64,000 nucleotides of DNA from contig NZ_JBGFSP010000011.1 in assembly GCF_041227145.1 (NCBI RefSeq), positions 78,448 through 142,447 of the forward strand, given 5' to 3'. This DNA comes from Bacteroides sp. AN502(2024) (lineage in GTDB: Bacteria > Bacteroidota > Bacteroidia > Bacteroidales > Bacteroidaceae). The notes under the pieces were generated by a model, which saw nothing but the letters and a program-made list of their open reading frames with translations, did no database searches and was not told the origin of the DNA. This document shows, piece by piece, positions 42,827-61,632 of this stretch (positions within the stretch are counted from its first letter, which is position 1; each line of letters starts with the position of its first letter). The translations under genes and the position numbers were made by a program.

Positions 42827-43783
42827 ATGATGCAAATGAGGAACAAAAATGGATTTAGCCGGTGTGGGGAGAACTACATCGTTCGTTTACGAAAGGAGGG
42901 TCGTTATTCAACAGCACATGTCTATCAGAATGCCCTTTATTCTTTCAGCAAGTTTTGCGGCACGTCCCATGTGTCGTTCGGACAGGTCAGCCGTGGAAGT
43001 TTGCGGCGTTATGGTCAGTACCTTTACGGGTGTGGCTTGAGACTGAACACGATTTCCACGTATATGCGTATGCTTCGTAGCATTTACAATCGGGGAGTGG
43101 AAGCTGGCATTGCGCCTTATGTGCCGCGACTGTTCCACGATGTTTATACGGGAGTGGATGTCCGCCAGAAGAAAGCCCTGCCCGCTGTCGAATTGCACAA
43201 GCTTCTGTATGAAGATCCCAAGTCGGATCGATTGCGTCGAACACAGGCGATTGCCTGCCTGATGTTCCAGTTCTGTGGAATGTCGTTTGCAGATCTGGCC
43301 CATCTGGAGAAATCTGCCTTGGATCAGAATGTATTGCGGTATAACCGAATCAAGACCAAGACTCCGATGAGTGTGGAAGTGCTTGATACGGCAAAGGAGA
43401 TGATCAACCGGCTCCGTAGCCGTCAGGATTCTCGTCCTGATTTTCCGGATTATCTGTTTGACATCCTTAGTAGTGACAAGAAACGGACGGATGAACGGGC
43501 TTATCGGGAATACCAGTCCGCCCTGCGTCAGTTCAATAATTGTTTGAAAGACTTGGCCAGAGCCTTACATCTGAAGTCTCCCGTCACTTCTTACACCCTC
43601 CGCCATTCCTGGGCCACGACCGCCAAGTATCGGGGAGTATCGATCGAAATGATTAGTGAATCATTGGGACACAAATCTATCAGAACCACACAAATCTATT
43701 TGAAAGGCTTCGGTCTTAAAGAACGCACAGAGGTAAATAAGGGGAATTTATCTTACATCAGGAACTATCGTTCAGGTAAATGA
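42827..43783 (+). CDS. Tyrosine recombinase beside an invertible capsule promoter
   Basis: Site-specific recombinase of 318 residues. An N-terminal SAM-like core-binding domain (about 15-105) is followed by the catalytic domain: KTKTPMSVEV (beta-strand Lys), SYTLRHSWATTA (box II, Tyr in place of the first His as often in Bacteroides), LGHKSIRTTQIYLKG with the nucleophile Tyr. Box I reads F-C-G-M-S-F-A-D-L; the Arg usually beside this Gly is Cys here, so activity should be tested. It sits 40 bp before the left inverted repeat of the 43824-44116 segment and is the obvious candidate to flip it. Confidence 0.88.
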   Translation: MMQMRNKNGFSRCGENYIVRLRKEGRYSTAHVYQNALYSFSKFCGTSHVSFGQVSRGSLRRYGQYLYGCGLRLNTISTYMRMLRSIYNRGVEAGIAPYVPRLFHDVYTGVDVRQKKALPAVELHKLLYEDPKSDRLRRTQAIACLMFQFCGMSFADLAHLEKSALDQNVLRYNRIKTKTPMSVEVLDTAKEMINRLRSRQDSRPDFPDYLFDILSSDKKRTDERAYREYQSALRQFNNCLKDLARALHLKSPVTSYTLRHSWATTAKYRGVSIEMISESLGHKSIRTTQIYLKGFGLKERTEVNKGNLSYIRNYRSGK

Positions 43784-43823
43784 TTAACGGTAAAGTATTA
43801 GAAATCAATATCGAATTATGTCT

Positions 43824-44116
43824 GTTACTTCTTAGGTAACGGATAATTATTCGATGCAAAGATATGTAAAAATACAAATAACAAACAAGTAAAATCTTCA
43901 TTTTTTTACAGATTTGTTGAAATATGCAACAAAAAACTATCCGGACATGATGCCGTTGTCTGATCATGTCTTAAATTCTTATACCCTGTTTTCAAAGCTG
44001 CTTTTCCCTTCGCTTAGGTTAGAAAAACATCCTTGTAGGTAGCTCCTGTCCATGTTTTTCTGCTTTCATCTGTTTTCCCTGTGAATGAGTACCTTATCCG
44101 TTACCTAAGAAGTAAC
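43824..44116. promoter_or_regulatory. Invertible promoter segment of the capsule locus
   Basis: A 293-bp segment lies between perfect 23-bp inverted repeats (43824-43846 and 44094-44116). Each repeat contains GTTAC-N7-GTAAC, two inverted 5-bp half-sites around a 7-bp spacer, as in tyrosine-recombinase core sites. The only recognisable promoter inside points left, away from upxY. Flipping would move its -7 box to 44076-44083, about 57 bp before upxY. The sequenced orientation is therefore read as OFF. This occupies the gap 43784-44139; no gene is seen there. Confidence 0.88.
43857..43885 (-). promoter_or_regulatory. Phase-variable promoter, OFF orientation
   Basis: The minus strand carries a -7 box TATCTTTG (43857-43864) and a -33 TTTG (43882-43885) with a 17-bp spacer. 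It fires toward the 3' end of the recombinase gene, possibly as antisense RNA, in this orientation. Confidence 0.72.
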
Positions 44117-44139
44117 GGACTAGTATGGGGTAAAAAAGT

Positions 44140-44736
44140 ATGATTCTAACGAAAGAAACTTTAAGTGCTGGGCCTAAAAATGGGACAGGGGAAGGCGTAG
44201 CACACCCTAAACGCTGGTATGTCGCCTTGGTTCGCATGCATCATGAGAAGAAAGTGGCCGAGCGTTTAGGCAAGATGGGGATTGAGAATTTTGTACCGGT
44301 CCAGCAGGAAGTACATCAATGGAGCGACCGCCGCAAGGTGGTCGAATGTGTGTTGCTTCCCATGATGGTTTTTGTGCATGCGGATGGGAAAGAACGCAAA
44401 GAGGTCCTTTCCCTGTCTACAGTCAGCCGGTATATGGTCATGCGCGGTGAGAGCAGTCCTGCAGTAATTCCCGATGATCAGATGGCCCGTTTCCGTTTTA
44501 TGCTCGACTATTCGGAAGAGGCGATCAGTATGAACAGTGCTCCCTTGGCACGTGGTGAGAAGGTCCGTGTCATCAAAGGTCCTTTGACGGGGCTTGTGGG
44601 CGAGCTTGTCACGGTTGGCGGCAAGAGTAAGATCGCTGTCCGTCTGGATATGCTGGGGTGTGCTTGTGCGGATATGCCGGTTGGGTATGTGGAGTTGCTA
44701 GACGATGGTCGTATGCCGAATTTCCGGTGTGGTTAA
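44140..44736 (+). CDS. UpxY-family capsule transcription antiterminator
   Basis: NusG-like antiterminator of 198 residues that lets RNA polymerase read through its own capsule operon. The NGN domain starts at about residue 24 with WYVALVRMHHEKKVAERLGK and VPVQQEVHQWSDRRK; the C-terminal KOW domain has RVIKGPLTGLVGELV. It is the first gene after the invertible promoter, the standard place for upxY. The usual second gene, upxZ (inhibitor of other UpxY proteins), is not found after it; an IS66-like relic is there instead. Confidence 0.92.
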   Translation: MILTKETLSAGPKNGTGEGVAHPKRWYVALVRMHHEKKVAERLGKMGIENFVPVQQEVHQWSDRRKVVECVLLPMMVFVHADGKERKEVLSLSTVSRYMVMRGESSPAVIPDDQMARFRFMLDYSEEAISMNSAPLARGEKVRVIKGPLTGLVGELVTVGGKSKIAVRLDMLGCACADMPVGYVELLDDGRMPNFRCG

Positions 44737-45162: not shown

Positions 45163-46707
45163 ATGAGCATAGAAACACAATCAAACAACAAACGCATTGC
45201 GAGAAATACGCTGTTGCTGTATATACGTACCATCCTTGTTATGGTCATTTCGTTATATACGAGCCGTGTAATCCTTTCTGTCTTGGGTGTGGACAATTAT
45301 GGTATATACAATGTGGTAGGTGGTGTTGTTGCCATGTTCTCTGTTGTATCCGGTGCTTTGTCTGGTTCCATCAGCCGTTTTATCACATTTGAACTGGGAC
45401 ATGGCAATGTAAACAGACTGAGAACCATCTTTTCTACAAGTATTAATATACAAATAGGCATATCATTACTCATTTTTTTGTTAGGAGAAACTATCGGTTT
45501 TTGGTTCCTTAACAACAAGATTGACATTCCGGCAGAACGGTTGCATGCAGCCAATTGGGTGTTGCAATGTTCACTGGCAACATTTATTATTAATTTGATC
45601 AGTGTCCCATATAATGCTGTCATCATAGCTCATGAGAAAATGTCCGTTTTTGCTTATGTCAGCATTTTGGAAGCAGCATTAAAATTATTCATAGTCTATT
45701 TTCTCTATATTTCTGCATGGGACAAATTAATAGTATACTCATTGCTTCTTGTTTTGGTTGCCATAGTCATACGAATTGTGTATGGGGTATATTGTAACCG
45801 ATACTTTGCGGAAACTCGTTATCAGAGGGTTCATGACCGTACCCTGCTTCGTGAGATGGCTTTATTTGCCGGTTGGGGATTTTTCACTAATGCAGTTTAT
45901 ATGTTTAACACACAAGGAATTAATATTCTCATTAACCTGTCTTTTGGTGTAACTGTAAATGCGGCAAGGGGAATAGCAACGCAGGTTGAAGCAGCGATGA
46001 TAAAATTTGTCAATGACTTTACAACGGCTCTCAATCCTCAAATCACCAAGAGTTATGCTGCAAGGCAGATGAACGAGATGTACAAACTTGTCAACCGTGG
46101 AGCAAAATTTTCAGCCTTTCTTACTTTGGCTATCTCTTTGCCTGTGTTATTTGAAGCGGACTATATCCTTGGTCTTTGGCTTGAAGAAGTGCCTCCACAC
46201 ACTGTTGCCTTTGTGCGTCTTGGCATCATTGCCACAATGCTCGACCGTCTTGGCAATACCGGTTATACTGCATGCATGGCCACAGGCACCATACGCCGCT
46301 ATGTGTTGTTGGTAAGTACTGTAGGGTGTCTGGTGTTCCCCGTCACATACCTTGTTTTTGAAATAGGTGCACCGGTGGAAGCTGTATACGTCGTATTCTG
46401 CGGAGTATATGTGGCAGTTGACGCTGTCCGCCTTTATGTTATGAAAGGGTTGCTGAAGTTTCCCGTCATGAGTTTCGTGCGCGGGGTAATCGGGCGAATA
46501 CTGCTTGTAGCGATGGTTTCATGTATTCTGCCATCATTGGTCATTTATATGGCAGATGAATCATTTTCCAGACTTGTCATTTCAACAATGGTCTGTCTTG
46601 CATCATCCATTGCGGCTACCTATTATGTGGGCTTTGACAGTCACGAGCAGAAGGTTGTCACACAAAAAGTGGTGAACATATACAAAAATAAAATCAAGAG
46701 AATCTAA
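45163..46707 (+). CDS. Oligosaccharide flippase (Wzx-like, PST/MATE-type)
   Basis: Inner-membrane flippase of 514 residues that turns lipid-linked capsule repeat units to the periplasmic side. About 12-14 transmembrane helices; the N-terminus has the Bacteroides Wzx pattern NKRIARNTLLLYIRTILVM and LYTSRVILSVLGVDNYGIYN. ATG 45163 is preferred over the GTG at 45154; both lie inside or next to the right inverted-repeat arm and no good ribosome-binding site is visible. It runs 5 bp before the SDR gene, so cotranscribed. Confidence 0.9.
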   Translation: MSIETQSNNKRIARNTLLLYIRTILVMVISLYTSRVILSVLGVDNYGIYNVVGGVVAMFSVVSGALSGSISRFITFELGHGNVNRLRTIFSTSINIQIGISLLIFLLGETIGFWFLNNKIDIPAERLHAANWVLQCSLATFIINLISVPYNAVIIAHEKMSVFAYVSILEAALKLFIVYFLYISAWDKLIVYSLLLVLVAIVIRIVYGVYCNRYFAETRYQRVHDRTLLREMALFAGWGFFTNAVYMFNTQGINILINLSFGVTVNAARGIATQVEAAMIKFVNDFTTALNPQITKSYAARQMNEMYKLVNRGAKFSAFLTLAISLPVLFEADYILGLWLEEVPPHTVAFVRLGIIATMLDRLGNTGYTACMATGTIRRYVLLVSTVGCLVFPVTYLVFEIGAPVEAVYVVFCGVYVAVDAVRLYVMKGLLKFPVMSFVRGVIGRILLVAMVSCILPSLVIYMADESFSRLVISTMVCLASSIAATYYVGFDSHEQKVVTQKVVNIYKNKIKRI

Positions 46708-46712
46708 CATAT

Positions 46713-47581
46713 ATGTCAGTCAAAAGTATCATCAAACGCGGCATACGTTATATAATCAAAGGTGTGCCCACTGTGAACGTCTATCCTCAAGTGTCATGTC
46801 TGGCTCCCAATGAGCTGCTGAAAGGTCGCACCGCCCTCATTACGGGCGGCACAAGCGGCATCGGCTATGAGATAGCAAAGGCCTATATCAATGCCGGTTC
46901 AAAAGTGATTATCACCGGTCGTAGACAAGAACGCATCGATAAGGCTTGCAGAGACATCAATGACGAAGTAGTCAACAAAGGTATGATACGTGGTCTTGTG
47001 ATGGATAATACTCTAACCGGAACCTTTGCCGACAAACTAAAAGAGGCTGTTGCGGGGGGGGGATAGATATCCTTGTAAACAATGCAGGTGTACTTGGTTG
47101 CAATTTCGGCACAGGCAAAGAAGAGGATTTTGATGCAGTGCTTGATACAAATCTCCGTGGCGTATTTTTTCTCTCCCAGACCGTTGCACACTATATGAAA
47201 GCCAACAATATCAAGGGGAACATTCTTAATATCGCCTCCTCATCAAGTCTGCGTCCGGCCACGTCTGCATATACTATCAGCAAGTGGGGAATTCGCGGGC
47301 TTACACTCGGCATGGCACGCATGCTTGCGCCCCACGGTATTGTGGTGAATGGTGTGGCTCCGGGTCCCACGGCAACACCGATGCTGATGACTGGCGGAGT
47401 AAAAGAGAACATCTATCATTCATCCAACCCGACGGGCCGCTTTGCGCTGCCGGAAGAAATTGCCAACATGGCCGTTATCCTTGTGAGTGGCATGGGGCGA
47501 ATGATTGTGGGGGATATTGTTTATATGACCGGAGGGGCGGGAAACTGTACAAATGAAGATATGGATTACGACTTTAACTGA
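46713..47581 (+). pseudogene. SDR-family oxidoreductase, out of frame at a G9 tract (phase-variable candidate)
   Basis: Short-chain NAD(P)-dependent reductase. The first frame has the Rossmann motif TGGTSGIGYEIAKAY and the ADP-binding-site strand VIITGRR, and stops with TAG (47064-47066) directly after a run of nine G at 47054-47062. The next frame continues at once with GIDILVNNAGVLG, then the catalytic ASSSSLRPATSAYTISKWG (Ser, Tyr, Lys) and GVAPGPTATPM. A run of 7 or 10 G would give one protein of about 289 residues. The gene is thus either reversibly switched off, or the tract length is misread. Its neighbours suggest reduction of a sugar or branched intermediate for the capsule. Confidence 0.85.
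47054..47062 (+). repeat. Poly-G tract (9 G), OFF length
   Basis: Homopolymer inside the SDR gene, at the codons for the Gly residues before I-D-I-L-V-N-N-A-G. Nine G shift the frame; 7 or 10 would restore it. Confidence 0.85.
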
Positions 47582-47704
47582 TTCTTACAATATAGCAGAC
47601 TGTTACCGTAACTGTTTCCCTGTTTGACGCAGGTGCCACATTAAAAATTATTCCCGATAGGTTTCACAGACTTACAGGTCTATAAATATTACATTCAACA
47701 ATAC

Positions 47705-49459
47705 ATGGAACAAAAGTATTATACCGATGAGCGCAATGTGCAGATTGTCATTTCTTTGCTCAAAGCGCATGGTATACGTAAGATTGTAGCCTCGCCCGGT
47801 ACTACCAATATTACGTTTGTCGGCAGTGTGCAGCAAGACCCATACTTTGAGATTTACAGTTCGGTGGATGAGCGCAGTGCTGCCTATATTGCCTGCGGCC
47901 TGGCTGCAGAAAGCGGTGAGACCGTGGTGCTTACATGCACTGGGGCAACCGCTTCGCGCAACTACTATAGCGGGCTTACGGAGGCTTATTACCGCAAACT
48001 GCCTGTCCTTGCCCTGACATCACACCAAGGCAACTACCGCATAGGTCAGCTGATTGCGCAGAATATAGACCGCCGGCAGTTACCAAACGACATTGTGACC
48101 TTGAGTGTGGAGGCTCCTCTTGTCCGAGACGACAATGATGAGCAACTTTGCACCATCAATGTGAACAATGCCCTGCTGGCTCTTACACGTCATGGCGGAG
48201 GTCCCGTGCATATAAACCTGTTTACGACGTACAGCCGGAACTTTTCCGTGAAGGAACTTCCTGTCGTCCGTTGTATACGCAGATATACCCCTAATGACAA
48301 AATGCCGCAGTTGCCGGAAGGAAAGATAGCCGTCACGGTCGGTTCCCACCTTCGTTTTACCGAAGGGCAGACCCAAGCGATAGATGACTTCTGTGCCACG
48401 CATGATGCCGTGGTGTTCTGCGACAATACCAGCGGATATTATGGCCGTTACAAGGTGGTATTTTCACTTGTGGCCACACAACACCAATATGAATCATCCA
48501 ACCGTAAAGTAAATTTGCTTATACATATCGGTGAAGTAAGCGGTGACTATTCAGGCATGGGGGTGCGGAGCAATGAAGTGTGGCGTGTGAACCTCGATGG
48601 CGAGTTGCGTGATCCCATGCGCAGGTTGACCAAAGTGTTTGAAATGCCCGAGGCTGATTTCTTCAGGCACTATGCCAAGGAGGGGCAAAGCCGCCATGCC
48701 TACCTTGACGCTTGTCGCGAGGAGGACGCTGTCGTGCGTAGCCGGATTCCGGAACTGCCTTTTGGCAATATTTGGGCGGCACAGCACACCATGCATCGAC
48801 TGCCAGTTTGCTCCGTACTCCATCTCGGCATCCTCAACACGTTACGCTCTTGGAATTTTTTTCCCATGCCAGAAGGCGTGGAAGGTTATTCCAATGTGGG
48901 AGGCTTTGGTATCGATGGTGATGTGTCATCGCTCATAGGATCTTCACTTGCACATCCCGAAAAGTTATATTTCGGTGTGTTTGGTGACCTTGCATTTTTC
49001 TACGACATGAACGTGGTGGGCAACAGACATGTGGGTAACAATATCCGTATCATGCTCGTCAACAATGGCAAGGGAGGTGAGTTCCGCAACTACGGTCATC
49101 CATGCAGCGCATTTGGCAAAGACGCTGAACCTTATATGGCGGCGGCCGGACACTACGGCAATAAATCGGCAGACCTTGTGCGGCACTATGCTGAGGACCT
49201 GGGCTATGAATACCTTGCAGCCTCTACCAAGGAAGAATATCTTACGGCGGTAGAACGCTGGCTCCACCCCTCTGTTACCAATCGTCCGATACTTTTCGAA
49301 GTGTTTGTCGACAGTGCAGAGGAATATAAGGCTCTCGAGCTGATCTCAAATTTCATGGTTGACGCGAAGACTGTACTGAAACGAAAGATGAAAGGCATCG
49401 TGAAGGATGTATTTGGTGAGGGGGCTGTGCAAACAATCAAGAATATTTTAGGGGAATAA
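47705..49459 (+). CDS. MenD-like ThDP-dependent enzyme, copy 1
   Basis: Cytoplasmic thiamine-diphosphate enzyme of 584 residues. The N-terminal Pyr domain has IVASPGTTNITFVGSVQ and the catalytic Glu in VDERSAAYIACGLAAESG; the PP domain has the ThDP/Mg motif FGDLAFFYDMN ... MLVNNGKGGEF. These match MenD (SEPHCHC synthase) best among ThDP families, but no other menaquinone gene is nearby and a close paralogue follows. In a capsule locus it may add a two- or three-carbon unit from a 2-oxoacid to a sugar or acceptor, as YerE does for yersiniose; this role is inference. It lies 123 bp after the SDR gene. Confidence 0.85.
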   Translation: MEQKYYTDERNVQIVISLLKAHGIRKIVASPGTTNITFVGSVQQDPYFEIYSSVDERSAAYIACGLAAESGETVVLTCTGATASRNYYSGLTEAYYRKLPVLALTSHQGNYRIGQLIAQNIDRRQLPNDIVTLSVEAPLVRDDNDEQLCTINVNNALLALTRHGGGPVHINLFTTYSRNFSVKELPVVRCIRRYTPNDKMPQLPEGKIAVTVGSHLRFTEGQTQAIDDFCATHDAVVFCDNTSGYYGRYKVVFSLVATQHQYESSNRKVNLLIHIGEVSGDYSGMGVRSNEVWRVNLDGELRDPMRRLTKVFEMPEADFFRHYAKEGQSRHAYLDACREEDAVVRSRIPELPFGNIWAAQHTMHRLPVCSVLHLGILNTLRSWNFFPMPEGVEGYSNVGGFGIDGDVSSLIGSSLAHPEKLYFGVFGDLAFFYDMNVVGNRHVGNNIRIMLVNNGKGGEFRNYGHPCSAFGKDAEPYMAAAGHYGNKSADLVRHYAEDLGYEYLAASTKEEYLTAVERWLHPSVTNRPILFEVFVDSAEEYKALELISNFMVDAKTVLKRKMKGIVKDVFGEGAVQTIKNILGE

Positions 49460-49463
49460 TATT

Positions 49464-51238
49464 ATGTTAAAAAAAATCAAAATAGGGGGGGTAAATCCTA
49501 CACTTCCGAAAGAAATATACAGATACTGATAGCTGTGATGAAAGCCAACGACATCCATCACGTGGTGACATCGCCGGGAGCTACCAACGTGACTTTTGTT
49601 GGTAGCATCCAAAACGATCCGTTCTTCGAGCTCTATTCTTGTGTTGATGAGCGCAGTGCCGCATATATGGCTACTGGACTTGCTGCCGAAACTATGCATC
49701 CGGTAGTGCTGAGCTGTACGGGAGCAACCTCCTCGCGCAACTATATGCCGGCCCTTACCGATGCTTATTACCGACACCTGCCCGTGCTGGTCGTGACTTC
49801 CAGTCAACGTCTAAGCCGTGTAGGTCAGCTGGTGGCACAGGTTACCGATCGGTCAACACCTCCAGCTGACACGGTGGTAAAGTCATTCCAGATTGATACG
49901 GTGGAATCGTCCGATGGCGAGGCACATGCTGTGATACAGGCTAATGAGGCCGTGTCGAGATTGTCTCTCAATGGTGGCGGACCGGTTCATGTCAACCTTA
50001 TAACCGTTTACAGTCGTGATTTCTCTGTAAGGCATCTGCCACCCACACGCATCCTGCACAGGGTGGACCGGGGCATGGAGTTTCCACCGTTGCCGCAAGG
50101 ACGCATAGCCATATTCGTGGGAAGCCATAAACGTTTCACCGATGAAGACACCAATACCATTGACGCTTTTTGCTCAACGAACGATGCTGTTGTTTTTTGC
50201 GATGCTGCAAGCAACTATTACGGACGTTATCGTATACAGTTTGCTCTGCCATTGGCACAGGAGAATTATGATTCGTCCTTCATGTACCCCGATCTGCTTA
50301 TTCATATCGGTGAGATAACAGGAGATTACACCGCAGGACGGTTGGCTCATAAGGAAGTGTGGCGTGTGTCGGAAGATGGTACATATCGTGACTTCTTTCA
50401 TTGTCTCACCCACCTGTTTAACATGAGTGAACGTGAGTTCTTCAGCCATTATGCGGCATCAGGCACAGGCAACCACTCCTATCTTGATGCTTGCCGTACA
50501 GAATATGAAATTACAGCAAGCAAAATTCCGGAACTGCCTTTCAGTAACGGGTGGATAGCACACCATACAGCCCATCTCATACCTGCCGGTTCACACGTTC
50601 AGCTCGGAATACTCAATTCGTTGAGACATTGGAATTTCTTTCCCTTTACCGACGGGGTGACATCACAGGTCAACGTCGGAGGATTTGGCATCGACGGCTG
50701 CGTATCATCGCTGGTGGGGGCTTCGCTCGTTCATCCTGACAAACTCTATTTCGGCATTTTCGGTGATCTCGCTTTCTTCTATGACATCAACGTGATTGCA
50801 TCTGCATCTATTAACAATAATCTCCGGATTATGGTGATCAACAATGGAAAGGGCACGGAATTCCGCAATTATAACCACATTGCCCAGATTTTCGGTGACG
50901 ATGCCGATAAGTATATGGCGGCAGCTGGGCATTTCGGCAACAAGTCGCAGCAACTCCTGCGCCATGCAGCCGAGAACTGCGGTTTTGAGTACCTTACTGC
51001 CTCAAATAAGCAAGAATACCTTACAGCTGCCGAGCGTTGGCTCATACCCGAAGTCACGGATCGTCCGATGCTTTTCGAGGTGTTTACCGACAGTAAGGAT
51101 GAGAATGTAGCCCTTTATACCCTTTGCCATATAAGAAGTTCTAAAAATTATGTATTGAAGCATAAAGTCAAAATTTTTGCCAAGGGAATACTTGGAGAGG
51201 GTGGTGTGAGAGTTGTAAAGAACTTATTGGATAAATGA
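49464..51238 (+). pseudogene. MenD-like ThDP-dependent enzyme, copy 2, out of frame at a G7 tract (phase-variable candidate)
   Basis: Paralogue of the preceding gene, aligned along its length: SPGATNVTFVGSIQ, VDERSAAYMATGLAAE, FGDLAFFYDINVIA, MVINNGKGTEF. The natural ATG at 49464 opens a frame that runs into seven G (49485-49491) and stops at 49527-49529. With eight G it would read on as K-I-G-G-G-K-S-Y-T-S-E-R-N and join the main frame, giving about 591 residues aligned with copy 1. A GTG at 49535 is the first later in-frame start but would cut off the first conserved helix. The gene is therefore OFF as read. Four bp separate it from the stop of copy 1, so translational coupling is likely. 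Confidence 0.85.
49485..49491 (+). repeat. Poly-G tract (7 G), OFF length
   Basis: Near the start of ThDP copy 2, in the context CAAAATA-Gn-TAAA. Eight G would be in frame. The same context surrounds the tract in the GT2 gene. Confidence 0.85.
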
Positions 51239-51345
51239 TCTGATTTAGGCTGAACGATAACATTTTGTAAATCAATAAGTCTGAATACCTGAAGGATATT
51301 TTATAAAAACTTGTAGTAGGGTGTAACTCAATAAATTAAGAATTA

Positions 51346-52527
51346 ATGAGAATAGGGATACTAACTTGCTGGAGTAGCAAAGACAACTACGGGCAACAGT
51401 TGCAATGCTGGGCGTTGCAGCAATACCTTAGAGGACAAGGGCACCAGCCCTATCTTGTGAGATTTGTAGCGCAATGTCCATCATTGTGGAAACATGTTAT
51501 GAATAAATTTCAGCTTTCGACATTTAAACATCTTATTAGTGGCAGGCGTTCACGAGAAAAAGCTGAATGGAGAATTGAAAAGCAACTTGCCGCCATCAAT
51601 AAAGCGAATAATCCCAAGCGGGAATTTGACAAGTTCAGGAACAAGTATATTGCAATGTCTGACAGGATTTATACAACCCTATCTGAGTTAAGGGAATCCC
51701 CTCCTGTTGCTGATGCATATATAACAGGTAGCGATCAGGTCTGGTTTGATACGCTTTCAAATCCCAACAACAGGGCTTGGTATCTTGATTTTGGGTCAGA
51801 ATCAGTTTTACGTATCTCATACGCAGCAAGTATCGGACGGGAAATTCTTCCGAGCGAACAGAAACTTTTCACCCGGTTGATACAAAGGCTTGACGCGGTC
51901 AGTGTACGCGAGCAGTCAGGATGGGAACAATGTCAGAGGGCCAGTCGCACGGATATCATGCAGGTTATAGATCCCACCCTCCTTATTGACAGCCAATCCT
52001 ATTCGGCTTTGACAAAAGGGGAGAAGCTGCATAATGAAGATTATATATTCGTATATGTGCTTAATGTACGCACACAACAAGAAATACATGCCGGTGAAAT
52101 CGAGTCTTACCGGTTATCAAAGGGGCTGAAACTGAAGACGGTGTATTCATCCGGTTATTATCAGGGGCGTAACTTGTTTGAAGGCAACGATAGCTTGTCG
52201 GCCACTATTCCGGAGTGGATCACCCTCATCCGCGATGCCCGTTGCGTAGCCAGCAGTTCCTTTCATGGTATTGTATTTAGTATTATTTATCACCGGTCAT
52301 TTGTTGCAATACCTCTTACGGGTAAAAGGAGCAAAGCCAATGCCCGTCTCACATCATTGCTTGGAAGTCTTGGTTTGCAAGAGCGTATCATGGCTGATGG
52401 ATCCGACTTTAAAGCATTGATGGACAAGCCCATCGACTGGGATGATGTAGAACGGAGACTCTCTGCGTTGCGCAGCAAATCATGGGAGTTCCTTCGTGAT
52501 GCACTATCTAAAAAGAAAAAGATATGA
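51346..52527 (+). CDS. Polysaccharide pyruvyltransferase-family protein
   Basis: Cytoplasmic transferase of 393 residues (PF04230-type, CsaB/GT-B-like fold) that typically adds a pyruvate ketal from phosphoenolpyruvate to a sugar of the repeat unit. Signatures: ILTCWSSKDNYGQQLQCWAL at the N-terminus, YITGSDQVWF, YAASIGRE, and the C-terminal CVASSSFHGIVFSIIYHRSF. Pyruvate gives the capsule a negative charge. Its stop overlaps the start of the next gene (ATGA at 52524). Confidence 0.87.
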   Translation: MRIGILTCWSSKDNYGQQLQCWALQQYLRGQGHQPYLVRFVAQCPSLWKHVMNKFQLSTFKHLISGRRSREKAEWRIEKQLAAINKANNPKREFDKFRNKYIAMSDRIYTTLSELRESPPVADAYITGSDQVWFDTLSNPNNRAWYLDFGSESVLRISYAASIGREILPSEQKLFTRLIQRLDAVSVREQSGWEQCQRASRTDIMQVIDPTLLIDSQSYSALTKGEKLHNEDYIFVYVLNVRTQQEIHAGEIESYRLSKGLKLKTVYSSGYYQGRNLFEGNDSLSATIPEWITLIRDARCVASSSFHGIVFSIIYHRSFVAIPLTGKRSKANARLTSLLGSLGLQERIMADGSDFKALMDKPIDWDDVERRLSALRSKSWEFLRDALSKKKKI

Positions 52528-53510
52528 AGAATCCGGTGATCTCAATTATTATCCCCGTATATAATGCGGAAGAGTACCTGAGACGTTGTTTAGACAGCTT
52601 TGTGGCGCAGACTTTCACGGATTGGGAAGTCTGGCTGATTGATGACGGATCGACTGACAGATCAGGAGCGATTTGTGATGAATATGCTGACCGCGATTCG
52701 CGTTTTTGTGTGATACACAAGGAGAATGGCGGTGTCGCATCCGCACGTCAGGCGGGGGTGGATAATGCACGGGGTGAATATTCCATCCATGCGGACGCCG
52801 ATGACTTTGTGGAGCCTGCGATGCTTGCCGACATGCTTTCCTACATTCGTGAAACGGGTGCAGATCTTGTTGTAACCGACTTTTACGGTGAGAATAAGCG
52901 AGGTTTCCGATATGTGAGCCGCCAGCGACCTACGGGTAACACTACTTCACAACTTATCGACGATGTTATTCACGGGCGGGTTCACGGTTCGCTTTGTAAC
53001 AAGCTTATGCGTCATGATTTATATAAAAAATATAATTTACGTTTTTTCAATGGAGTGGACTATTGCGAAGATGTGCTTATTCTCGCCCAATTGGCACGTC
53101 ACTCCCAGCGCGTGGTCTCTTTGACCCGTGCTTACTACCACTATTGTTATGCTCCGAAGAGCATAACACGAGATATTTCGATAAAGACTTATAATATGCA
53201 AAAGGAATACGTAAAAATGCTTGACAAAATAGGGGGGGGTAAAAGCTACCTTGTCCGTCTCGCGGCTCACCGTGCAAAACTTGATGCGCTACGAAACGGC
53301 CTGATGACCCGTGATGAATATTACTCATTCTTTCCTTCTTGCAAAGATGTGTGCATAGACACCCCCAACCTTGAATCGTATCTTTTCGGAGTGACAGCAC
53401 TCGGTGGCCATTACCGCATGGCGGTGGCAATGTTCCGTACGCTTCAATTCTTTCGGAAAATACTATCTTTTATGCTGAGTCCCGTAAAACATTATCTTAC
53501 AAGTATCTGA
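52524..53510 (+). CDS. GT2 glycosyltransferase containing an in-frame G8 tract
   Basis: Inverting GT-A glycosyltransferase of 328 residues building the capsule repeat unit from a nucleotide sugar. Motifs: ISIIIPVYNAEEYLRRCLDS, WLIDDGSTDRSG and the D-x-D region in HADADDFVEP. Start overlaps the pyruvyltransferase stop by 4 bp. A run of eight G at 53232-53239 encodes the Gly residues of K-I-G-G-G-K-S-Y; it is in frame, so the gene is ON as read. A gain or loss of one G would truncate the last quarter of the protein (about 92 residues). Confidence 0.9.
   Translation: MKNPVISIIIPVYNAEEYLRRCLDSFVAQTFTDWEVWLIDDGSTDRSGAICDEYADRDSRFCVIHKENGGVASARQAGVDNARGEYSIHADADDFVEPAMLADMLSYIRETGADLVVTDFYGENKRGFRYVSRQRPTGNTTSQLIDDVIHGRVHGSLCNKLMRHDLYKKYNLRFFNGVDYCEDVLILAQLARHSQRVVSLTRAYYHYCYAPKSITRDISIKTYNMQKEYVKMLDKIGGGKSYLVRLAAHRAKLDALRNGLMTRDEYYSFFPSCKDVCIDTPNLESYLFGVTALGGHYRMAVAMFRTLQFFRKILSFMLSPVKHYLTSI
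53232..53239 (+). repeat. Poly-G tract (8 G), ON length
   Basis: In the GT2 gene; context CAAAATA-Gn-TAAA, nearly the same as at 49485-49491. Confidence 0.85.
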
Positions 53511-53587
53511 GTCTATACAGCCATGTGGCGCAGATAAAACGGAAAGGATGAATCATCCAACTCATTTTTTATTTGCATCACATAGCT

Positions 53588-54772
53588 ATGAACATCTTAT
53601 TTTTTACAACTTATCAGCTTTCGCCTACCAAGGGAGGTACAGAGCGTATAACACTTTCTTTAGCCAACATACTGCGTAGTCGATATGGATACAAATGTTA
53701 TTCCGCATATATGGTACCCGACAAGATTGACAAGCTTGAATATCTTGACGGATCATTTTGTCTACCTCGTTGGTATGGCAAGGCTTGGCGGAAGCAATTG
53801 CACCGATTTGTAACGAGCCATCAAATTTCGATTATCATCAATCAAGGATCATTCAACATGCAGCCAAGGTTTGCTGACTGCTTGAAAGGGATGGGCATCA
53901 GATTTATATTGGTCCATCACTTCGAGCCAGGATGGGGGGAACATTTCATAACGTTCCGCAGCATATTCTTCAAATTGCTTCATTCGCCTAGGTTGTTATC
54001 CTCTTGTCGGGCGCTACTTTATCTTATAACATATCCATTATTTAAAATGCATTATAACGCAAGCATATCATGCCAATATCACCGTGGTTATGAAAGCGCG
54101 CACCGCATGGTGCTGCTTTCCAGGGGCTTCCGCCAACAGTTTCTCGATTATGCCCGCATAACCGATGGTAGTAAACTGCGCTTCATTCCCAATATGTTGT
54201 CCTTCTCTGCGTTCCTGTCTGAGACAGAGATACCCCATAAAGAGAAAATTGTACTTGTGGTTGCCCGTCTGGAGGAAACTCAAAAACGTATTTCCCATAT
54301 CCTGCGTATTTGGCAACAGATTGAACAAAGTTCGGGAAATAAGGATTGGACGCTTCATATCGTCGGGCACGGTATGGACGAAGCCCGTTATTATCGCTTG
54401 GTCCGTCAACTCGGTCTGCAGCGAGTCACGTTTCATGGTCGTCAAAATCCGGAGCCTTACTATCGCAGGGCATCTCTTTTTATGATGACCAGCCGCAGTG
54501 AGGGGTGGGGGCTTACCCTCACCGAAAGCCAGCAGATGGGTGTCGTTCCATTGGCATACGACAGTTACAGTTCACTCCGTGACATCATAACAGACGGATA
54601 TAATGGTTTCATCATTCCGGATACGGATATCAATACATACGCAAGCCGAATGCTTGAATTAATGAACAATGATGAATTACGTCGGAAAATTGCATGTCAA
54701 GCCATTGAAAGTGCACATAGATTCGAGCCTGCAACAGTAGCGGATAAGTGGGTGAAAGTGATAGAAGAGTAA
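53588..54772 (+). CDS. GT4 glycosyltransferase
   Basis: Retaining GT-B glycosyltransferase of 394 residues from ATG 53588 (a TTG at 53573 adds five residues). N-terminal TTYQLSPTKGGTERITLSLA holds the glycine loop; the C-terminal domain has VVARLEETQKRISHI, LHIVGHGMDEARY and the E-x7-E segment SRSEGWGLTLTESQQMGVVP that contacts the nucleotide sugar. A run of six G at 53934-53939 is present but in frame and short. It is the last complete capsule gene before the prophage. Confidence 0.92.
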   Translation: MNILFFTTYQLSPTKGGTERITLSLANILRSRYGYKCYSAYMVPDKIDKLEYLDGSFCLPRWYGKAWRKQLHRFVTSHQISIIINQGSFNMQPRFADCLKGMGIRFILVHHFEPGWGEHFITFRSIFFKLLHSPRLLSSCRALLYLITYPLFKMHYNASISCQYHRGYESAHRMVLLSRGFRQQFLDYARITDGSKLRFIPNMLSFSAFLSETEIPHKEKIVLVVARLEETQKRISHILRIWQQIEQSSGNKDWTLHIVGHGMDEARYYRLVRQLGLQRVTFHGRQNPEPYYRRASLFMMTSRSEGWGLTLTESQQMGVVPLAYDSYSSLRDIITDGYNGFIIPDTDINTYASRMLELMNNDELRRKIACQAIESAHRFEPATVADKWVKVIEE

Positions 54773-54864: not shown

Positions 54865-55346
54865 AAAACGAAACGTACAAAAGCATAATACTCGTTTTAG
54901 GATATAAGGATTTGATAATTAAATATATAAGTAGGGATAATAGGATAGAGTACTATAAAACGAAACGTACAAAAGGTTTAAGTTGGTTTAGTTTTGGTTT
55001 AAGACGAAAGCAAAGTGTTTAAGCAGGTGTTTAATGCGGCTTTGCTTCAGGTTTAATTTGCTTTAATCGCATGGGCGGTCAGGTGGCTTTTTAGAGGCTT
55101 TCTGACCGCTTCCTTTTGTTTGGCGGCAATGCTTACAAATGGGCAAGAACTGCGTTAAATGGGGCTTTTGCCCGTATGTCTGTTCGTTTCCTAACATGGA
55201 GTCGGTATTGGAAAGGTGAGGTTGCAAATGGAACACAAACACTGTTTAATGGGTATTTAACCGCCTGTTAAATGAGCCTTCGGAAATGATAGAATTAAGG
55301 TAGTAAATGTTCGTGTAGGTAGGAGGTAAAATGGTACGTTTCGTTT
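54865..55346. repeat. Candidate transposase-binding sites at the phage left end
   Basis: AAAACGAAACGTACAAAAG occurs twice in direct orientation (54865-54883 and 54957-54975, 92 bp apart), and its 13-bp core GTACGTTTCGTTT occurs inverted at 55334-55346. Multiple sites with mixed orientation are the architecture of Mu attL. The 54773-55647 gap otherwise holds only the structures listed separately. Confidence 0.7.
55075..55109 (+). terminator. Hairpin with T-rich tail in the phage end
   Basis: GCGGTCAG (55075-55082) pairs with CTGACCGC (55102-55109), followed by TTCCTTTTGTTT. It could insulate the phage from capsule transcription or end a small RNA. Confidence 0.5.
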
Positions 55347-55356
55347 AAAAAATAGG

Positions 55357-55392
55357 TGTTGGGTATAGTGTTGGGTATAGTGTTGGGTATAG
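55357..55392 (+). repeat. Three perfect 12-bp tandem repeats
   Basis: TGTTGGGTATAG is repeated exactly three times in a row, next to the inverted end site at 55334-55346. No open frame uses it. Confidence 0.8.
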
Positions 55393-55647
55393 TTATCGGT
55401 AGGGGAATACTCCCCCCAAATGGCAAAAATGACTATAAAAAAGCGGCTTTTTCGTGAAAATCTACCCCTTTAATTCCTTTTTGAATATAGGAAAAATAAC
55501 GGCTATAATCTGTATAAGTAATTGATTATAAGTGCTTAATGCATGATTTACTCTCCAAAAATGAAGAAAATAGCTAATCATCATCCTTTTTGCCCCATTT
55601 TAGGGATGTCGGCAGTATGAATGTAGACAGTGTGTTGGTGTACCGAA

Positions 55648-56073
55648 TTAGCCGACATTGGCAATAGTATCGGTGTTCGCATTGGTTGCATTTTTTTCAA
55701 AACGCTGTTGCATTTGGGCTATGCGCTCACGTAGCTGCCCGATTTCTTCGGACATAGTACGAATCGTTGCGTCTTTTTCTTGAATTATTGCGAATAATTT
55801 ATCTTCAATCCCTGTGCTGGGTGAAGCACCGACCACTTTCTCCTCTTCGGGGCGGAAATCAAAAGCATCTCCTCTACCTGTTATAAACCATGTAGTGTTT
55901 ACTTCCGCAATTGCGCATACTTTTTCCACTACATCAAAGGACGGCTTCCCCTGTCGTTTTCCTACTATATTTTCAACAACAGACGGAGCTACTCCAATTG
56001 CACTGGCAAAAGCACTCTTGTTGCCTCCATATAGCGTGCGTATTATCTTTCCGAACCGTTCATTTATACTCAT
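55648..56073 (-). CDS. Phage repressor (XRE-type HTH)
   Basis: Predicted lysogeny repressor of 141 residues. The N-terminal helix-turn-helix covers about residues 15-50 (NKSAFASAIGVAPSVVENIV), followed by an acidic linker and a C-terminal coiled coil (IIQEKDATIRTMSEEIGQLR and on), which probably mediates oligomerisation. There is no LexA-like peptidase domain, so release is not by RecA-stimulated self-cleavage. It reads leftward, divergent from the early operon, with two palindromic operators between. Confidence 0.85.
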   Translation of the reverse strand: MSINERFGKIIRTLYGGNKSAFASAIGVAPSVVENIVGKRQGKPSFDVVEKVCAIAEVNTTWFITGRGDAFDFRPEEEKVVGASPSTGIEDKLFAIIQEKDATIRTMSEEIGQLRERIAQMQQRFEKNATNANTDTIANVG

Positions 56074-56089
56074 AAGTAATCAAAAAATA

Positions 56090-56151
56090 GCGCATTTGCG
56101 CAAAATAATTCTATTTTTATTTGTTATATGCGCAAATGCGCATTATCTTTG
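56090..56151 (+). promoter_or_regulatory. Early promoter with twin palindromic operators
   Basis: Two matching palindromic operators, GCGCATTTGCGC (56090-56101) and its reverse complement GCGCAAATGCGC (56130-56141), flank an early promoter: -33 TTTG at 56120-56123 and -7 TATCTTTG at 56144-56151, spacer 20 bp. The second operator sits inside the spacer, so a bound repressor would block polymerase; the first is close to the repressor start and may give autoregulation. Confidence 0.82.
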
Positions 56152-56238
56152 CAACGGATTAAAAAATTAACCAGCGCCCAAATATACGAAAAAAAGGTGA
56201 TATGGTGAATTTAAGGTGTAAAACATAAACAAGCAACA

Positions 56239-56598
56239 ATGAAAAAGTACATTCATGTGACTAAGGAAGATCGTCATTTTTTGGCACAAGCATTCGGAGT
56301 GTCGGACGTTACGGTATGGAAAGCGCTCAAATACGAGCAGGACACTAACACCATTCGGAAAATTCAGTTTCACGCCCTGCAACGTGGTGGTATTCTAATG
56401 ATTGTTTCCCCCGCAATGGAAACAATGCACGATGTTGACGGCTATATGCGTCAGTATTTCCCCAATGGTGTGATGCTGGAATGCGATAAGAACACGGGGC
56501 GTGTGGACATCATCAAGGACGGCAAGCCGGTGAAGAACTACAAAAACGTAATGTTAAACCAGTTTCCTGCCATACAGGCGGAAGCACAAAACCTTTAA
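56239..56598 (+). CDS. Small phage early protein with N-terminal HTH-like segment
   Basis: First gene of the early operon, 119 residues. ATG 56239 starts KKYIHVTKEDRHFLAQAFGV followed by SDVTVWKALKYEQD, which looks like a helix-turn-helix; the rest (VDGYMRQYFPNGVMLECDKN, a strand-rich part) is not recognised. By position it is equivalent to Mu Ner, a regulator of the early promoter, but this is inferred. Confidence 0.7.
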   Translation: MKKYIHVTKEDRHFLAQAFGVSDVTVWKALKYEQDTNTIRKIQFHALQRGGILMIVSPAMETMHDVDGYMRQYFPNGVMLECDKNTGRVDIIKDGKPVKNYKNVMLNQFPAIQAEAQNL

Positions 56599-56617
56599 GC
56601 CATGAGCAAAAACAGGA

Positions 56618-56953
56618 TCAATCGTCAAGGTGGTACTCGAAAACAATCTCAACCCCTTTCTTGTAGGCCAGATTTGAGAATAGAGATTTCATTAGTTCAA
56701 CCCTTAAATATGCCTGTTCCAGACAGGAATATTGAAAGGATAAAGGCAGCGTCAGGGTGCCTTCTTCATCAAATGAATGTTGTAAATAGTTTGGTTCGGG
56801 TGCAAGATCGGACTTTTCCCATACAATCAAGAAAGCCCGAGCCACAACTTGTAGAATGCCTGATATATCAGACAGAAACTCTTCTAAATATTCTCGAACG
56901 TTATGTTCTTCCACAGCTGGAGCGGACAAGTGACAGTAAATATTGACTTCCAT
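56618..56953 (-). CDS. Leftward small gene inside the early operon (moron candidate)
   Basis: Protein of 111 residues from ATG 56953, acidic and with normal composition: MEVNIYCHLSAPAVEEHNV, LEEFLSDISGILQVVARAFL, and a C-terminal helix RVELMKSLFSNLAYKK. It runs against the early operon, between its first gene and the transposase, and has its own -7 box at 56977-56984. The opposite frame (56602-56946) is Arg/Gln/Pro-rich and looks like a shadow. No family recognised; candidates are lysogenic conversion, superinfection exclusion or a regulator. Confidence 0.6.
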   Translation of the reverse strand: MEVNIYCHLSAPAVEEHNVREYLEEFLSDISGILQVVARAFLIVWEKSDLAPEPNYLQHSFDEEGTLTLPLSFQYSCLEQAYLRVELMKSLFSNLAYKKGVEIVFEYHLDD

Positions 56954-56976
56954 AAATGTAATTTTAACAACCGCTA

Positions 56977-56984
56977 CAAATATA
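56977..56984 (-). promoter_or_regulatory. Bacteroides-type -7 box, TATATTTG (minus strand)
   Basis: Exact TAnnTTTG match 23 bp before the leftward gene at 56953, in the 39-bp gap before the transposase ATG. Confidence 0.55.
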
Positions 56985-56992
56985 CGCAAATT

Positions 56993-58996
56993 ATGGAATA
57001 TTACGGTAACACGCTTTGTATAAGCCATGCAGAATTAACGGCAGGCATCATGTCGAAATCTAACCTTAACTACTATGTAAGAGAGGGGAAGATTAAGCAG
57101 GTGCAACGTGCCTGTTATGGTACACCCGCGCTGTTTGCCGTTGAAAGCCTGCCATTAAAATACCGCACGGAGGTTTACCGCCGCAACCCCGACTTACAGG
57201 AAAAAGCCGACAGCAAGCCTTTTATGGATACAATCACCCCGGACGGACAGGCCATGCGGTTTTATGAGGCCTACGTGCTGCCCGATGGTCGCCATCTCTC
57301 CCCCGAGAAGCAGGCGGAATATTCAAACAACTGTGCCATCATGAACGCTTTTCGGCAGTGTATCGAAACCAGCAACAGTCACCGCATGCGTCAGAGCAAA
57401 CCGCGTGTGAACAAGACGGAGTTCTGGCGCAAGGCCGCGGCAGCCCTGCCTCGCCTGGCTGACCGCTTCCCGCACTCGTTACCCGAAAGCGATCGCCGCC
57501 TGCAACGCAAGTTCAACGAGTACCTGCACGAGGGTTATGCGTGCTTCATCAGCAAGAAATTCCAGAATATCAACGCCGCAAAGGTGGATGACGAAGACAA
57601 GGAAAGCGTTTTAACGGTCATACTTGCGCACCATAACAACCTTGACGACGTAACAATCGCGGGGTATTATAACCGTGAAGCCCGCAAGAACGGCTGGAAA
57701 GAGATCACCCCCTCCGCCGTCGGTGTGTGGCGAAAGAAAAAAGACCTTATAATTTCAGTCGGCCGCCGCGGTCTTACGAATTTCCGCAACGAAAAGAGTA
57801 TGCAAGTGAAGCGCAGCCGTCCGACCGCTCCGTTCCTGATGTGGACGCTTGACGGTTGGGATGTGGAACTGCTCTATCAAAAGACCAAGACGAACAGCAA
57901 GGGACACAACGTTGCCAATTACGACAACCGTCTGACGTTGGAGGTGGTGCTTGACCCGTGTATAAATTACCCGATAGGGTATGCCATCGGCACGCACGAG
58001 ACCCCCGATTTGATAGCCGAAGCACTGCGCAATGCAGCCAAGCACAGCGAGGAGCTTTTCGGGGTCATGCTTCGGGCAAACCAGATACAATGCGACCACT
58101 ATGCCATTAAGGCCATGACGCCTGTTTATGGCGTGATGGGCAAATTGCTGACCCCCGCCCGCGTGAAGAACGCCAAGTCAAAGGTAATAGAACCGTATTT
58201 CGACTACCTGAATGAAACCTACTGTAACAAGTGGAACAACTGGAGCGGCTACGGCGTGACGACGAACCCGAAACGCCAGCCCAATGCGGAAGCCCTGAAC
58301 AGGCTTCGGCACAGTTTCCCCGACGAGGCAGGCGTCCGCCGCCAGATAGAGGAAATGATACAGGCTGAACGCGCCTTAAAAATAGCGCAGTTCCGCGCAT
58401 TGATGGAGAACCTGCCGACGGAACGCCGCCTGCCTTTGAACCGTGAGGCGTATCTGTACAGCTTCGGCGCGGCGACAGGCTTCAAGAACGCCATCGAGGG
58501 CAGCGGCCTGCGCCCCACGCTTCTGGGTATGAAGCGCGACTATGACTGTTTTGACATCCGTTTCAGGGAACACACGGGAACACGCTGGACGGTCAAGTAC
58601 GATCCTGACAACCTGCATGAGGTTCTGGCTGTGAATGAAGACGGCACGCTGCGTTTCATGCTGACAGAAAAATACGTGCAGCCGATGGCACTTGCCGACC
58701 GAAAGACGGGTGATGCCGCGGAACTTCAAAAGGTGTTTGATTTTAACGAACGGCTGGAGGGGTACGTTCTGGAGAACCTGAATGCCGCTTATGAAAAGGC
58801 CGATACGTACATGCGTGAGGATAATACGTTAAACCGCCTACTGTTATGTGACAGCCGCGGCCAGCATAAACTGCCGAAAGCGCAGAAACGTCTGAAAGCT
58901 GTTGATGTGGAGGCGATAGAAGTTAAGACGGTGGAAGTTCCCATTATACCGCAGGGCGCACCCTCGACAGATAAAGACGATTATTCAATTTTCTAA
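56993..58996 (+). CDS. MuA-like DDE transposase
   Basis: Phage transposase of 667 residues that binds the phage ends, nicks them and joins them to target DNA. ATG 56993 is used because the earlier frame crosses the divergent gene. The N-terminus has an HTH-type segment (LCISHAELTAGIMSKSNLNY); the RNase-H core shows Asp in WTLDGWDVELL, Asp in QIQCDHYAIKAM and Glu in KVIEPYFDYLNE; then a Mu-transposase C-terminal beta barrel (from about 540) and a tail that may contact the ATPase. The stop is 11 bp before the MuB-like gene. Confidence 0.92.
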   Translation: MEYYGNTLCISHAELTAGIMSKSNLNYYVREGKIKQVQRACYGTPALFAVESLPLKYRTEVYRRNPDLQEKADSKPFMDTITPDGQAMRFYEAYVLPDGRHLSPEKQAEYSNNCAIMNAFRQCIETSNSHRMRQSKPRVNKTEFWRKAAAALPRLADRFPHSLPESDRRLQRKFNEYLHEGYACFISKKFQNINAAKVDDEDKESVLTVILAHHNNLDDVTIAGYYNREARKNGWKEITPSAVGVWRKKKDLIISVGRRGLTNFRNEKSMQVKRSRPTAPFLMWTLDGWDVELLYQKTKTNSKGHNVANYDNRLTLEVVLDPCINYPIGYAIGTHETPDLIAEALRNAAKHSEELFGVMLRANQIQCDHYAIKAMTPVYGVMGKLLTPARVKNAKSKVIEPYFDYLNETYCNKWNNWSGYGVTTNPKRQPNAEALNRLRHSFPDEAGVRRQIEEMIQAERALKIAQFRALMENLPTERRLPLNREAYLYSFGAATGFKNAIEGSGLRPTLLGMKRDYDCFDIRFREHTGTRWTVKYDPDNLHEVLAVNEDGTLRFMLTEKYVQPMALADRKTGDAAELQKVFDFNERLEGYVLENLNAAYEKADTYMREDNTLNRLLLCDSRGQHKLPKAQKRLKAVDVEAIEVKTVEVPIIPQGAPSTDKDDYSIF

Positions 58997-59007
58997 AACG
59001 AAATAAG

Positions 59008-59856: not shown

Positions 59857-59862
59857 ATAGCT

Positions 59863-60501
59863 ATGGGACGGGCGATAAGCAATAAAAACGTACTGACGGC
59901 AAAATTTGAGGTGGCCGACTTTGACGGGGCATTTCTTGCCAGCTTCGGACGGCCGGAACTGCGTGGCGCATGGATAATCTACGGCGGCAGCGGCTCAGGT
60001 AAAACCACCTTTGTGATGCAGGTCTGCAAGTACCTTACCCGCTTTCGTCGCGTGGCATATAACAGTCTGGAGCAGGGTTTAAGCCTGTCATTGCAAAAAG
60101 CATGGGAGCGCGTGGGCATGGCGGAAGTCGGCAACCGCATTATACTGCTGAATAAAGAACAGCTGAAAGAATTGCGCACCCGTTTGAAGAAGAAACAAAG
60201 CCCTGACGTGATTGTGATTGACAGCGTACATTATTTAAGACGCTTCAATATGGATCAGTACCAGACTTTGCGTGACGAGTTCCCCGGCAAACTGTTTATT
60301 TTCATTAGCCATGAAAAGGCAGGCCAGCCCAAAGGCACGATGGCACAGAACATCCGCTATGACAGTGAGATAAAAATACGTGTGGAGGGTTACAAGGCAT
60401 TCGTCACTACCCGTTACGAGGTTGCCGACCTCGGTGAGGGCGGCGCGGACTTCGTGATATGGGAAGCAGGCGCACAGGAGTATTGGATTGATAAAATGTA
60501 A
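59863..60501 (+). CDS. Phage RecA/AAA-like ATPase
   Basis: P-loop protein of 212 residues: Walker A IIYGGSGSGKTTFVMQ, Walker B PDVIVIDSVHYLRR, and a following LFIFISHEKAGQPKG loop as in RecA-fold and DnaB-like proteins. It starts 6 bp after the MuB-like gene. A role in phage DNA processing or replication is likely; the exact partner is not known. Confidence 0.8.
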   Translation: MGRAISNKNVLTAKFEVADFDGAFLASFGRPELRGAWIIYGGSGSGKTTFVMQVCKYLTRFRRVAYNSLEQGLSLSLQKAWERVGMAEVGNRIILLNKEQLKELRTRLKKKQSPDVIVIDSVHYLRRFNMDQYQTLRDEFPGKLFIFISHEKAGQPKGTMAQNIRYDSEIKIRVEGYKAFVTTRYEVADLGEGGADFVIWEAGAQEYWIDKM

Positions 60502-60507
60502 AATGAT

Positions 60508-61395: not shown

Positions 61396-61428
61396 AAGTA
61401 TCTGTGTATAACTAATAACAAAACAGGC

Positions 61429-61611: not shown

Positions 61612-61632
61612 TAAACTAATAACAAATCAGGT

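What the first reader, a model, noticed from the sequence alone, without database searches (positions are those of the whole stretch)
47054..53239. Three poly-G tracts in one capsule locus: candidate contingency genes in Bacteroides
Runs of 9, 7 and 8 G occur in three biosynthetic genes within 6.2 kb (47054-47062 SDR, 49485-49491 ThDP copy 2, 53232-53239 GT2). Two are out of frame exactly at the tract and one is in frame, as expected for a population snapshot of slipped-strand phase variation. Bacteroides capsules are known to switch by DNA inversion; homopolymer switching there is not something I know to be described. Each tract would change the capsule structure rather than its on/off state.
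Basis: partly seen in the sequence, partly recalled or inferred. Interest (0 to 1): 0.85.

Follow-up and report, generated by a model that had tools for sequence, protein, structure and literature searches.

The report
Poly-G switch candidates in capsule genes
A gut Bacteroides-like bacterium carries runs of G inside several genes that build its sugar coat, placed so that copying slips would turn those genes on or off, but sequencing error is not yet excluded.

Summary
Reading frames break at the first two; the third is in frame. The count is not above a simple chance model; three within 6.2 kb is unusual for this genome (interval chosen afterwards). Two results favour slippage switching. A 289-aa SDR on another database contig matches both window halves without a mismatch and is unbroken. 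And in this genome longer G-runs sit more often in polysaccharide genes: G7 1 of 31 examined, G8 4 of 11, G9 or longer 9 of 13. Against: the assembly splits pheT at a G7, so a wrong or captured G-length occurs here. The locus also has UpxY, a recombinase and an inverted-repeat promoter segment, and a Mu-like prophage follows GT4. Best reading: poly-G contingency genes inside an invertible capsule locus, confidence 0.5. Eight literature searches listed no such case for Bacteroides capsules (lists capped).

The parts
42827..43783 (+). tyrosine recombinase (Phage_integrase), candidate invertase at the head of the capsule locus
   Evidence: PF13102 and PF00589
43820..44120 (.). inverted repeats 43820-43846 / 44094-44120 enclosing a promoter-like TATCTTTG on the minus strand: candidate invertible promoter, here pointing away from the locus
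   Evidence: 27-nt arms, 96% complementary, 247 nt apart; box found on the minus strand only; the Bacteroides promoter consensus is recalled
44140..44736 (+). UpxY family transcription antiterminator
   Evidence: NF033644, 175.9 bits against a cut-off of 100; PF02357
45154..46707 (+). flippase-like (Wzx-like) protein
   Evidence: MatE match just below the Pfam cut-off (23.7 against 24.9 bits); Wzx by position, inferred
46713..47581 (+). short-chain dehydrogenase gene, frame broken at tract 1
   Evidence: PF00106 / PF13561 on both pieces; identical unbroken relative P0121
47054..47062 (+). tract 1, G9
47705..49459 (+). ThDP enzyme copy 1, MenD-like, no tract
   Evidence: PF02776; MenD chains lead the PDB matches
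49464..51238 (+). ThDP enzyme copy 2, 56% identical to copy 1, N-terminal frame broken at tract 2
49485..49491 (+). tract 2, G7, 21 nt after the ATG
   Evidence: 14 of the 22 nearest listed relatives carry two or three consecutive Gly near this place
51346..52527 (+). polysaccharide pyruvyl transferase
   Evidence: PF04230
52524..53510 (+). GT2 glycosyltransferase, in frame over tract 3
   Evidence: PF00535
53232..53239 (+). tract 3, G8, at about residue 237 of 328, behind the GT2 domain match (residues 7-169)
53573..54772 (+). GT4 glycosyltransferase, last capsule gene before the prophage
   Evidence: PF00534
54865..64000 (+). Mu-like transposable prophage running to the contig end; left edge approximate and inferred
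   Evidence: phrog_310 transposase, phrog_296 transposition protein; two 19-nt direct repeats and a 13-nt inverted copy near the left side; contig length 142447 equals the window end

Best explanation
The locus is an UpxY-type capsule locus with a candidate invertible promoter, in which poly-G tracts in biosynthesis genes act as translational contingency switches. DNA polymerase slips in the G-run, the frame behind it is lost or regained, and SDR, ThDP copy 2 or GT2 is made or not made in that cell. Promoter inversion would decide whether the locus is transcribed; tract lengths would decide which sugar-modifying steps operate. Shown: tracts, frame status, an unbroken identical SDR elsewhere, length-dependent concentration of G-runs in polysaccharide genes of this genome. 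Inferred: slippage in living cells, reversibility, capsule effect, function of the inverted repeats.
For: Frames break at the tract in SDR and ThDP copy 2 while the remaining pieces are open. P0121, on a 9,752-nt contig, is 289 aa, 117/117 identical to the upstream piece and 100% identical over 100% of the 172-aa downstream piece, and unbroken; the window's assembly holds one such SDR, split, the next best matches being 33% identical or less. Of the 22 nearest listed ThDP copy-2 relatives (P0241-P0262), 14 have two or three consecutive Gly shortly before the conserved SERN segment, 2 have one, 1 has Gly-Arg-Gly, and 5, among them the nearest two (90% and 86%), are predicted to start behind the place. 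In G000, polysaccharide genes hold 1 of 31 examined G7, 4 of 11 G8 and 9 of 13 runs of 9 or more; Fisher 13/24 against 1/31 P = 2e-5. Runs of 9 or more number 13 where 4.0 are extrapolated from G7 and G8. A GT11 gene (G9) and a wzy-like gene (G16) are also broken at their runs. A related genome has G9, G13 and G12 within 2.2 kb, the last two at acyltransferase genes.
Against: pheT is split exactly at a G7 run in this assembly, so wrong or captured G-lengths occur, and P0121 against the window could be one. The window count fits a simple chance model. The Gly runs are not conserved: GGG stands just before IDILVNNAG in 2 of the 106 listed SDR relatives where the motif was found (P0121, P0216; 14 of 120 lacked the motif), and in GT2 in 1 of 120 listed, the query itself. 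Of 117 ThDP genes found in fetched loci, the window's copy included, only it has a G-run of 6 or more at the N-terminus (L099 has a G7 further upstream). In the genus at large, long G-runs are not confined to such genes. The promoter-like box points away and a prophage follows GT4, so the locus may be silent. No read data.
Confidence: 0.5

Rival explanations
1. Assembly or sequencing miscalls: the tracts exist but their lengths are misread, and SDR and ThDP copy 2 are really intact and fixed.
For: pheT, normally essential (recalled), is split at a G7 in the same assembly; P0121 is unbroken.
Against: 22 of 30 examined G7 runs lie inside an ORF with 25 or more residues on each side; the two nearest ThDP copy-2 relatives, from other contigs, also appear to lack their N-terminus; miscalls do not explain why long runs sit in polysaccharide genes.
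Confidence: 0.27
2. Recent pseudogenes: fixed slips in genes of a locus that no longer matters because a prophage interrupts it.
For: Prophage genes after GT4; promoter-like box pointing away; Gly runs not conserved in relatives.
Against: No other frame break seen in SDR or ThDP copy 2; identical unbroken SDR elsewhere; a GT11 and a wzy-like gene in other polysaccharide loci of the genome are likewise broken at G-runs.
Confidence: 0.15
3. Neutral homopolymers that slip as a by-product of codon runs and relaxed constraint in fast-evolving capsule genes, with no selection for switching.
For: Window counts fit chance; genus-wide runs also lie in intergenic stretches and unrelated genes.
Against: Excess of runs of 9 or more and gene-class bias in this genome; five polysaccharide stretches hold 6 runs of 9 or more against 0.3 expected from synonymous shuffles, though those stretches were chosen because they hold runs.
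Confidence: 0.08

Closest known systems
G/C homopolymer contingency genes of Campylobacter jejuni capsule and LOS loci (review PMC8355987, 12 passages seen)
   Same: G-runs inside capsule and glycan genes, several per locus, mainly G9 and G10 there; some add non-essential modifications
   Different: different phylum; here variation is not measured, two of three tracts are shorter than G9, and the locus also has a candidate invertible promoter
Invertible-promoter, UpxY-controlled capsule loci of Bacteroides fragilis and B. thetaiotaomicron (review PMC12632263, 7 passages seen)
   Same: UpxY as first gene, inverted repeats upstream, variable biosynthesis genes behind
   Different: the passages seen name only DNA inversion as the switch; poly-G tracts would add a second layer inside the operon
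Slippage proposed for a B. fragilis PSI/9 acetyltransferase (PMC3090145, passages seen)
   Same: frameshift in a run of one base in a Bacteroides polysaccharide gene
   Different: run of only 4 C, single case, offered as speculation

Membership tests
homopolymer translational contingency locus | run of about 7 or more identical bases inside a coding region | tested here: met
homopolymer translational contingency locus | both sides of the tract belong to one gene, so a length change alters the frame | tested here: met
   P0121 spans both SDR pieces without mismatch; GT2 open over its tract
homopolymer translational contingency locus | gene makes a surface structure | tested here: met
   by families only: UpxY locus with GT2, GT4, pyruvyltransferase
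homopolymer translational contingency locus | tract length differs between clones or isolates | tested here: inconclusive
   frame differs between the window and P0121, but a wrong or captured G-length exists in the assembly
homopolymer translational contingency locus | high-rate, reversible switching | not testable with these tools
   needs reads or cultures
homopolymer translational contingency locus | several such genes per genome, biased to surface genes | tested here: met
   9 of 13 runs of 9 or more in or just before polysaccharide genes against 1 of 31 examined G7
UpxY-type phase-variable Bacteroides capsule locus | UpxY antiterminator as first gene | tested here: met
   NF033644 above cut-off
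UpxY-type phase-variable Bacteroides capsule locus | promoter between inverted repeats | tested here: met
   by sequence only; inversion itself not tested
UpxY-type phase-variable Bacteroides capsule locus | flippase and polymerase genes | tested here: inconclusive
   flippase-like match below cut-off; no polymerase recognised before the prophage, the rest of the locus is not seen

The most novel reading that the evidence does not exclude
Some Bacteroides use two nested switches for their capsules: promoter inversion picks the locus, and poly-G slippage at nine or more polysaccharide genes across the genome rewrites the chemistry of what is made, a Campylobacter-like phasome that my searches did not find described for Bacteroides.
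Probability: 0.35. Interest if true: 0.78.

Novelty: new member of a known kind. Interest (0 to 1): 0.52.

Why it matters
Capsule switching in gut Bacteroides is treated, in the reviews I saw passages of, as a DNA-inversion problem. If slippage also operates, one promoter state would hide many chemical states, which matters for phage resistance, immune recognition and strain typing. It is directly testable in existing long-read data by counting tract lengths.

Tried and rejected
Viral contigs: no relative of ThDP copy 2, P0121 or the ThDP alignment. Strain comparison through other species: 34 other genomes of 158 in the genus have some match to 46600-53600, but pieces over 100 nt are only 64-77% identical, so no tract comparison. 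Conservation of the ThDP tract in named genomes: the best 80 of 331 relatives were kept; with other loci 117 genes were examined and only the window's carries it. Genus-wide enrichment: 73 runs of 9 or more in 70 loci, 30 of them given by the tool (one per genome) and 40 picked by me from a capped list, leaving out runs at contig ends and most of the run-rich genomes; 54 touch an ORF, 18 do not, 1 lies at an edge. Pfam tallies, first 25 families shown only: Acyl_transf_3 in 5 of 54, Glycos_transf_2 in 3, Hexapep in 3; 38 control ORFs taken about 60 kb away gave Plug in 4, Glycos_transf_4 in 2, Bac_transf in 1, GDP_Man_Dehyd in 1. Suggestive only. A context motif, G-run followed by TAAA, was followed as a possible mechanism: after 4 of 13 own and 10 of 71 genus runs of 9 or more, against 1 and 5 for the mirror image; in 34 same-genus genomes 32 against 20 for the reversed pattern (summed by hand). 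It lies on either coding strand here, so a stop-trap does not explain it; left unexplained.

Full report
What is there. The window is C11:78448-142447 of a 4.8-Mb, 15-contig assembly of an unnamed organism; Bacteroides is inferred from UpxY and from the few names given to relatives. The window ends at the contig end (one search gives the contig length). From 42.8 to 54.8 kb lies a capsule locus: tyrosine recombinase, a 27-nt inverted-repeat pair enclosing a promoter-like box, UpxY, a flippase-like gene, SDR, two tandem MenD-like ThDP genes, pyruvyltransferase, GT2 and GT4. Mu-like prophage genes follow to the contig end, so the rest of the locus is not seen.

The tracts. G9, G7 and G8 are exact and are the only G or C runs of 7 or more in the window. 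The SDR frame and the ThDP copy 2 frame break at their tracts; GT2 is open. Tract 2 sits at the very start of its gene, tract 1 between adh_short profile positions 59 and 78, tract 3 behind the GT2 domain match at residues 7-169.

Chance. A first-order Markov model gives 3.7 such runs per window against 3 seen, so the bare count is ordinary. The genome itself has fewer: 41 G7, 11 G8 and 13 of 9 or more, 0.87 per 64 kb. Three within 6.2 kb has P = 9e-5 under that density, with the interval chosen afterwards. Runs of 9 or more are 13 against 4.0 extrapolated, and 4 reach 12 or more against 0.08.

Which genes. I read the ORFs at 30 of 41 G7 runs, at all 11 G8 and at the 13 longer runs (window), and ran Pfam on candidates. 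None of the 30 G7 cases looks like a polysaccharide gene by eye (one, L061, looks like a MATE transporter; a few have no clear gene); the window's own G7 makes 1 of 31; ten G7 runs were not examined. G8: two hexapeptide transferases, an acyltransferase and the GT2, 4 of 11; a fifth (L034) resembles an acetyltransferase by eye but has no Pfam match and is not counted. Longer: Bac_transf, hexapeptide transferase, GT11, GT4, a run about 100 nt before a polysaccharide flippase gene, GT-D, a wzy-like gene without family match and named by position, a UDP-sugar dehydrogenase (run at its 3' end) and the SDR, 9 of 13; the other four lie at a DUF4923 gene, before an OmpA-like gene, in or near a SpoIIM-like gene and behind a gene without a family above cut-off. 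Fisher 13/24 against 1/31 gives P = 2e-5. GT11 and the wzy-like gene are out of frame at their runs; the Bac_transf, hexapeptide, GT4, GT-D and four G8 cases are open.

Natural intact form. Searching the downstream SDR piece alone found P0121, 289 aa, on a 9,752-nt contig, 5 member sequences. It matches the upstream piece 117/117 and all 172 residues of the downstream piece at 100%. The own assembly has one such SDR, split. So two contigs with an otherwise identical protein differ in frame at the tract. The table shows no source for P0121, so isolate and platform are unknown.

ThDP copy 2. The nearest relatives (P0241 90%, P0242 86%) start behind the tract place. Of P0241-P0262, 14 have two or three consecutive Gly shortly before the conserved SERN segment, 2 have one, 1 has Gly-Arg-Gly and 5 start behind it; the copy-1 type has none there. 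That their DNA there is poly-G is inferred, since only proteins are held. Among 117 genes in fetched loci only the window's has the tract.

Counter-evidence. pheT is split at a G7 run: pheT_bact positions 174-634 and 669-797 fall in two frames. As phenylalanyl-tRNA synthetase is essential (recalled), that is a miscall or a captured slipped molecule, and it weakens every single length in this assembly; 22 of 30 examined G7 runs nonetheless lie well inside open ORFs. The Gly runs in SDR and GT2 are not conserved in the listed relatives. In the genus, 55 of 60 genomes have at least one run of 9 or more, but of 73 runs in 70 loci, partly picked by me, 18 touch no ORF and many lie in unrelated genes; acyltransferase, GT2 and hexapeptide families lead the tally of 54 ORFs against a mixed control of 38 that also holds a few polysaccharide genes. 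One related genome repeats the layout: G9, G13 and G12 within 2.2 kb, the last two at acyltransferase genes.

Literature. Eight full-text searches listed no paper whose title or abstract start describes homopolymer switching of Bacteroides capsules; most lists were capped. Passages seen: PMC3090145 speculates on slippage at a run of 4 C; PMC12632263 names only inversions; PMC11868660 mentions Bacteroides with inversion; PMC13343947, on Akkermansia, reports inversion and mentions earlier suggestions of slippage; PMC8355987 describes G-tracts in Campylobacter capsule genes; PMC2831843 does not mention Bacteroides; PMC6437147 concerns Campylobacter cgtB. Subscription papers and preprints are mostly not held.

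Conclusion. Contingency genes are the best single explanation, but this rests on one frame difference between contigs and on gene-class bias, with a broken pheT in the same assembly. Read-level counting would settle it.

Noticed in passing
L070 (G000:C4 near 220311, minus strand): pheT is split into two frames exactly at a G7 run, a likely miscall or captured slipped molecule.
   Followed up: yes
family genomes, genus g8: G-runs of 8 or more followed by TAAA: 107 matches against 9 for the reversed pattern in 15 genomes, with 29 against 0 in G058 and in G109 (summed by hand); several lie near the N-terminus of what look by eye like SusC/TonB receptor genes.
   Followed up: partly
window 54865-64000: Mu-like transposable prophage genes following GT4 and running to the contig end.
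   Followed up: partly
window 43820-44120: Inverted-repeat promoter segment whose promoter-like box points away from the locus in this assembly, beside a tyrosine recombinase.
   Followed up: partly
L079 8676-8691 and L077 13263-13271: A wzy-like gene with a G16 run and a GT11 gene with a G9 run, both out of frame at the run, in other polysaccharide loci of the same genome.
   Followed up: partly
L263 (G228:C1:3657400-3662600): Three G-runs (9, 13, 12) within 2.2 kb, two of them at acyltransferase genes, in a related genome.
   Followed up: partly
G223 and G252: Two genus genomes with 34 and 33 runs of 9 or more G, far above most others; not examined for assembly quality.
   Followed up: no
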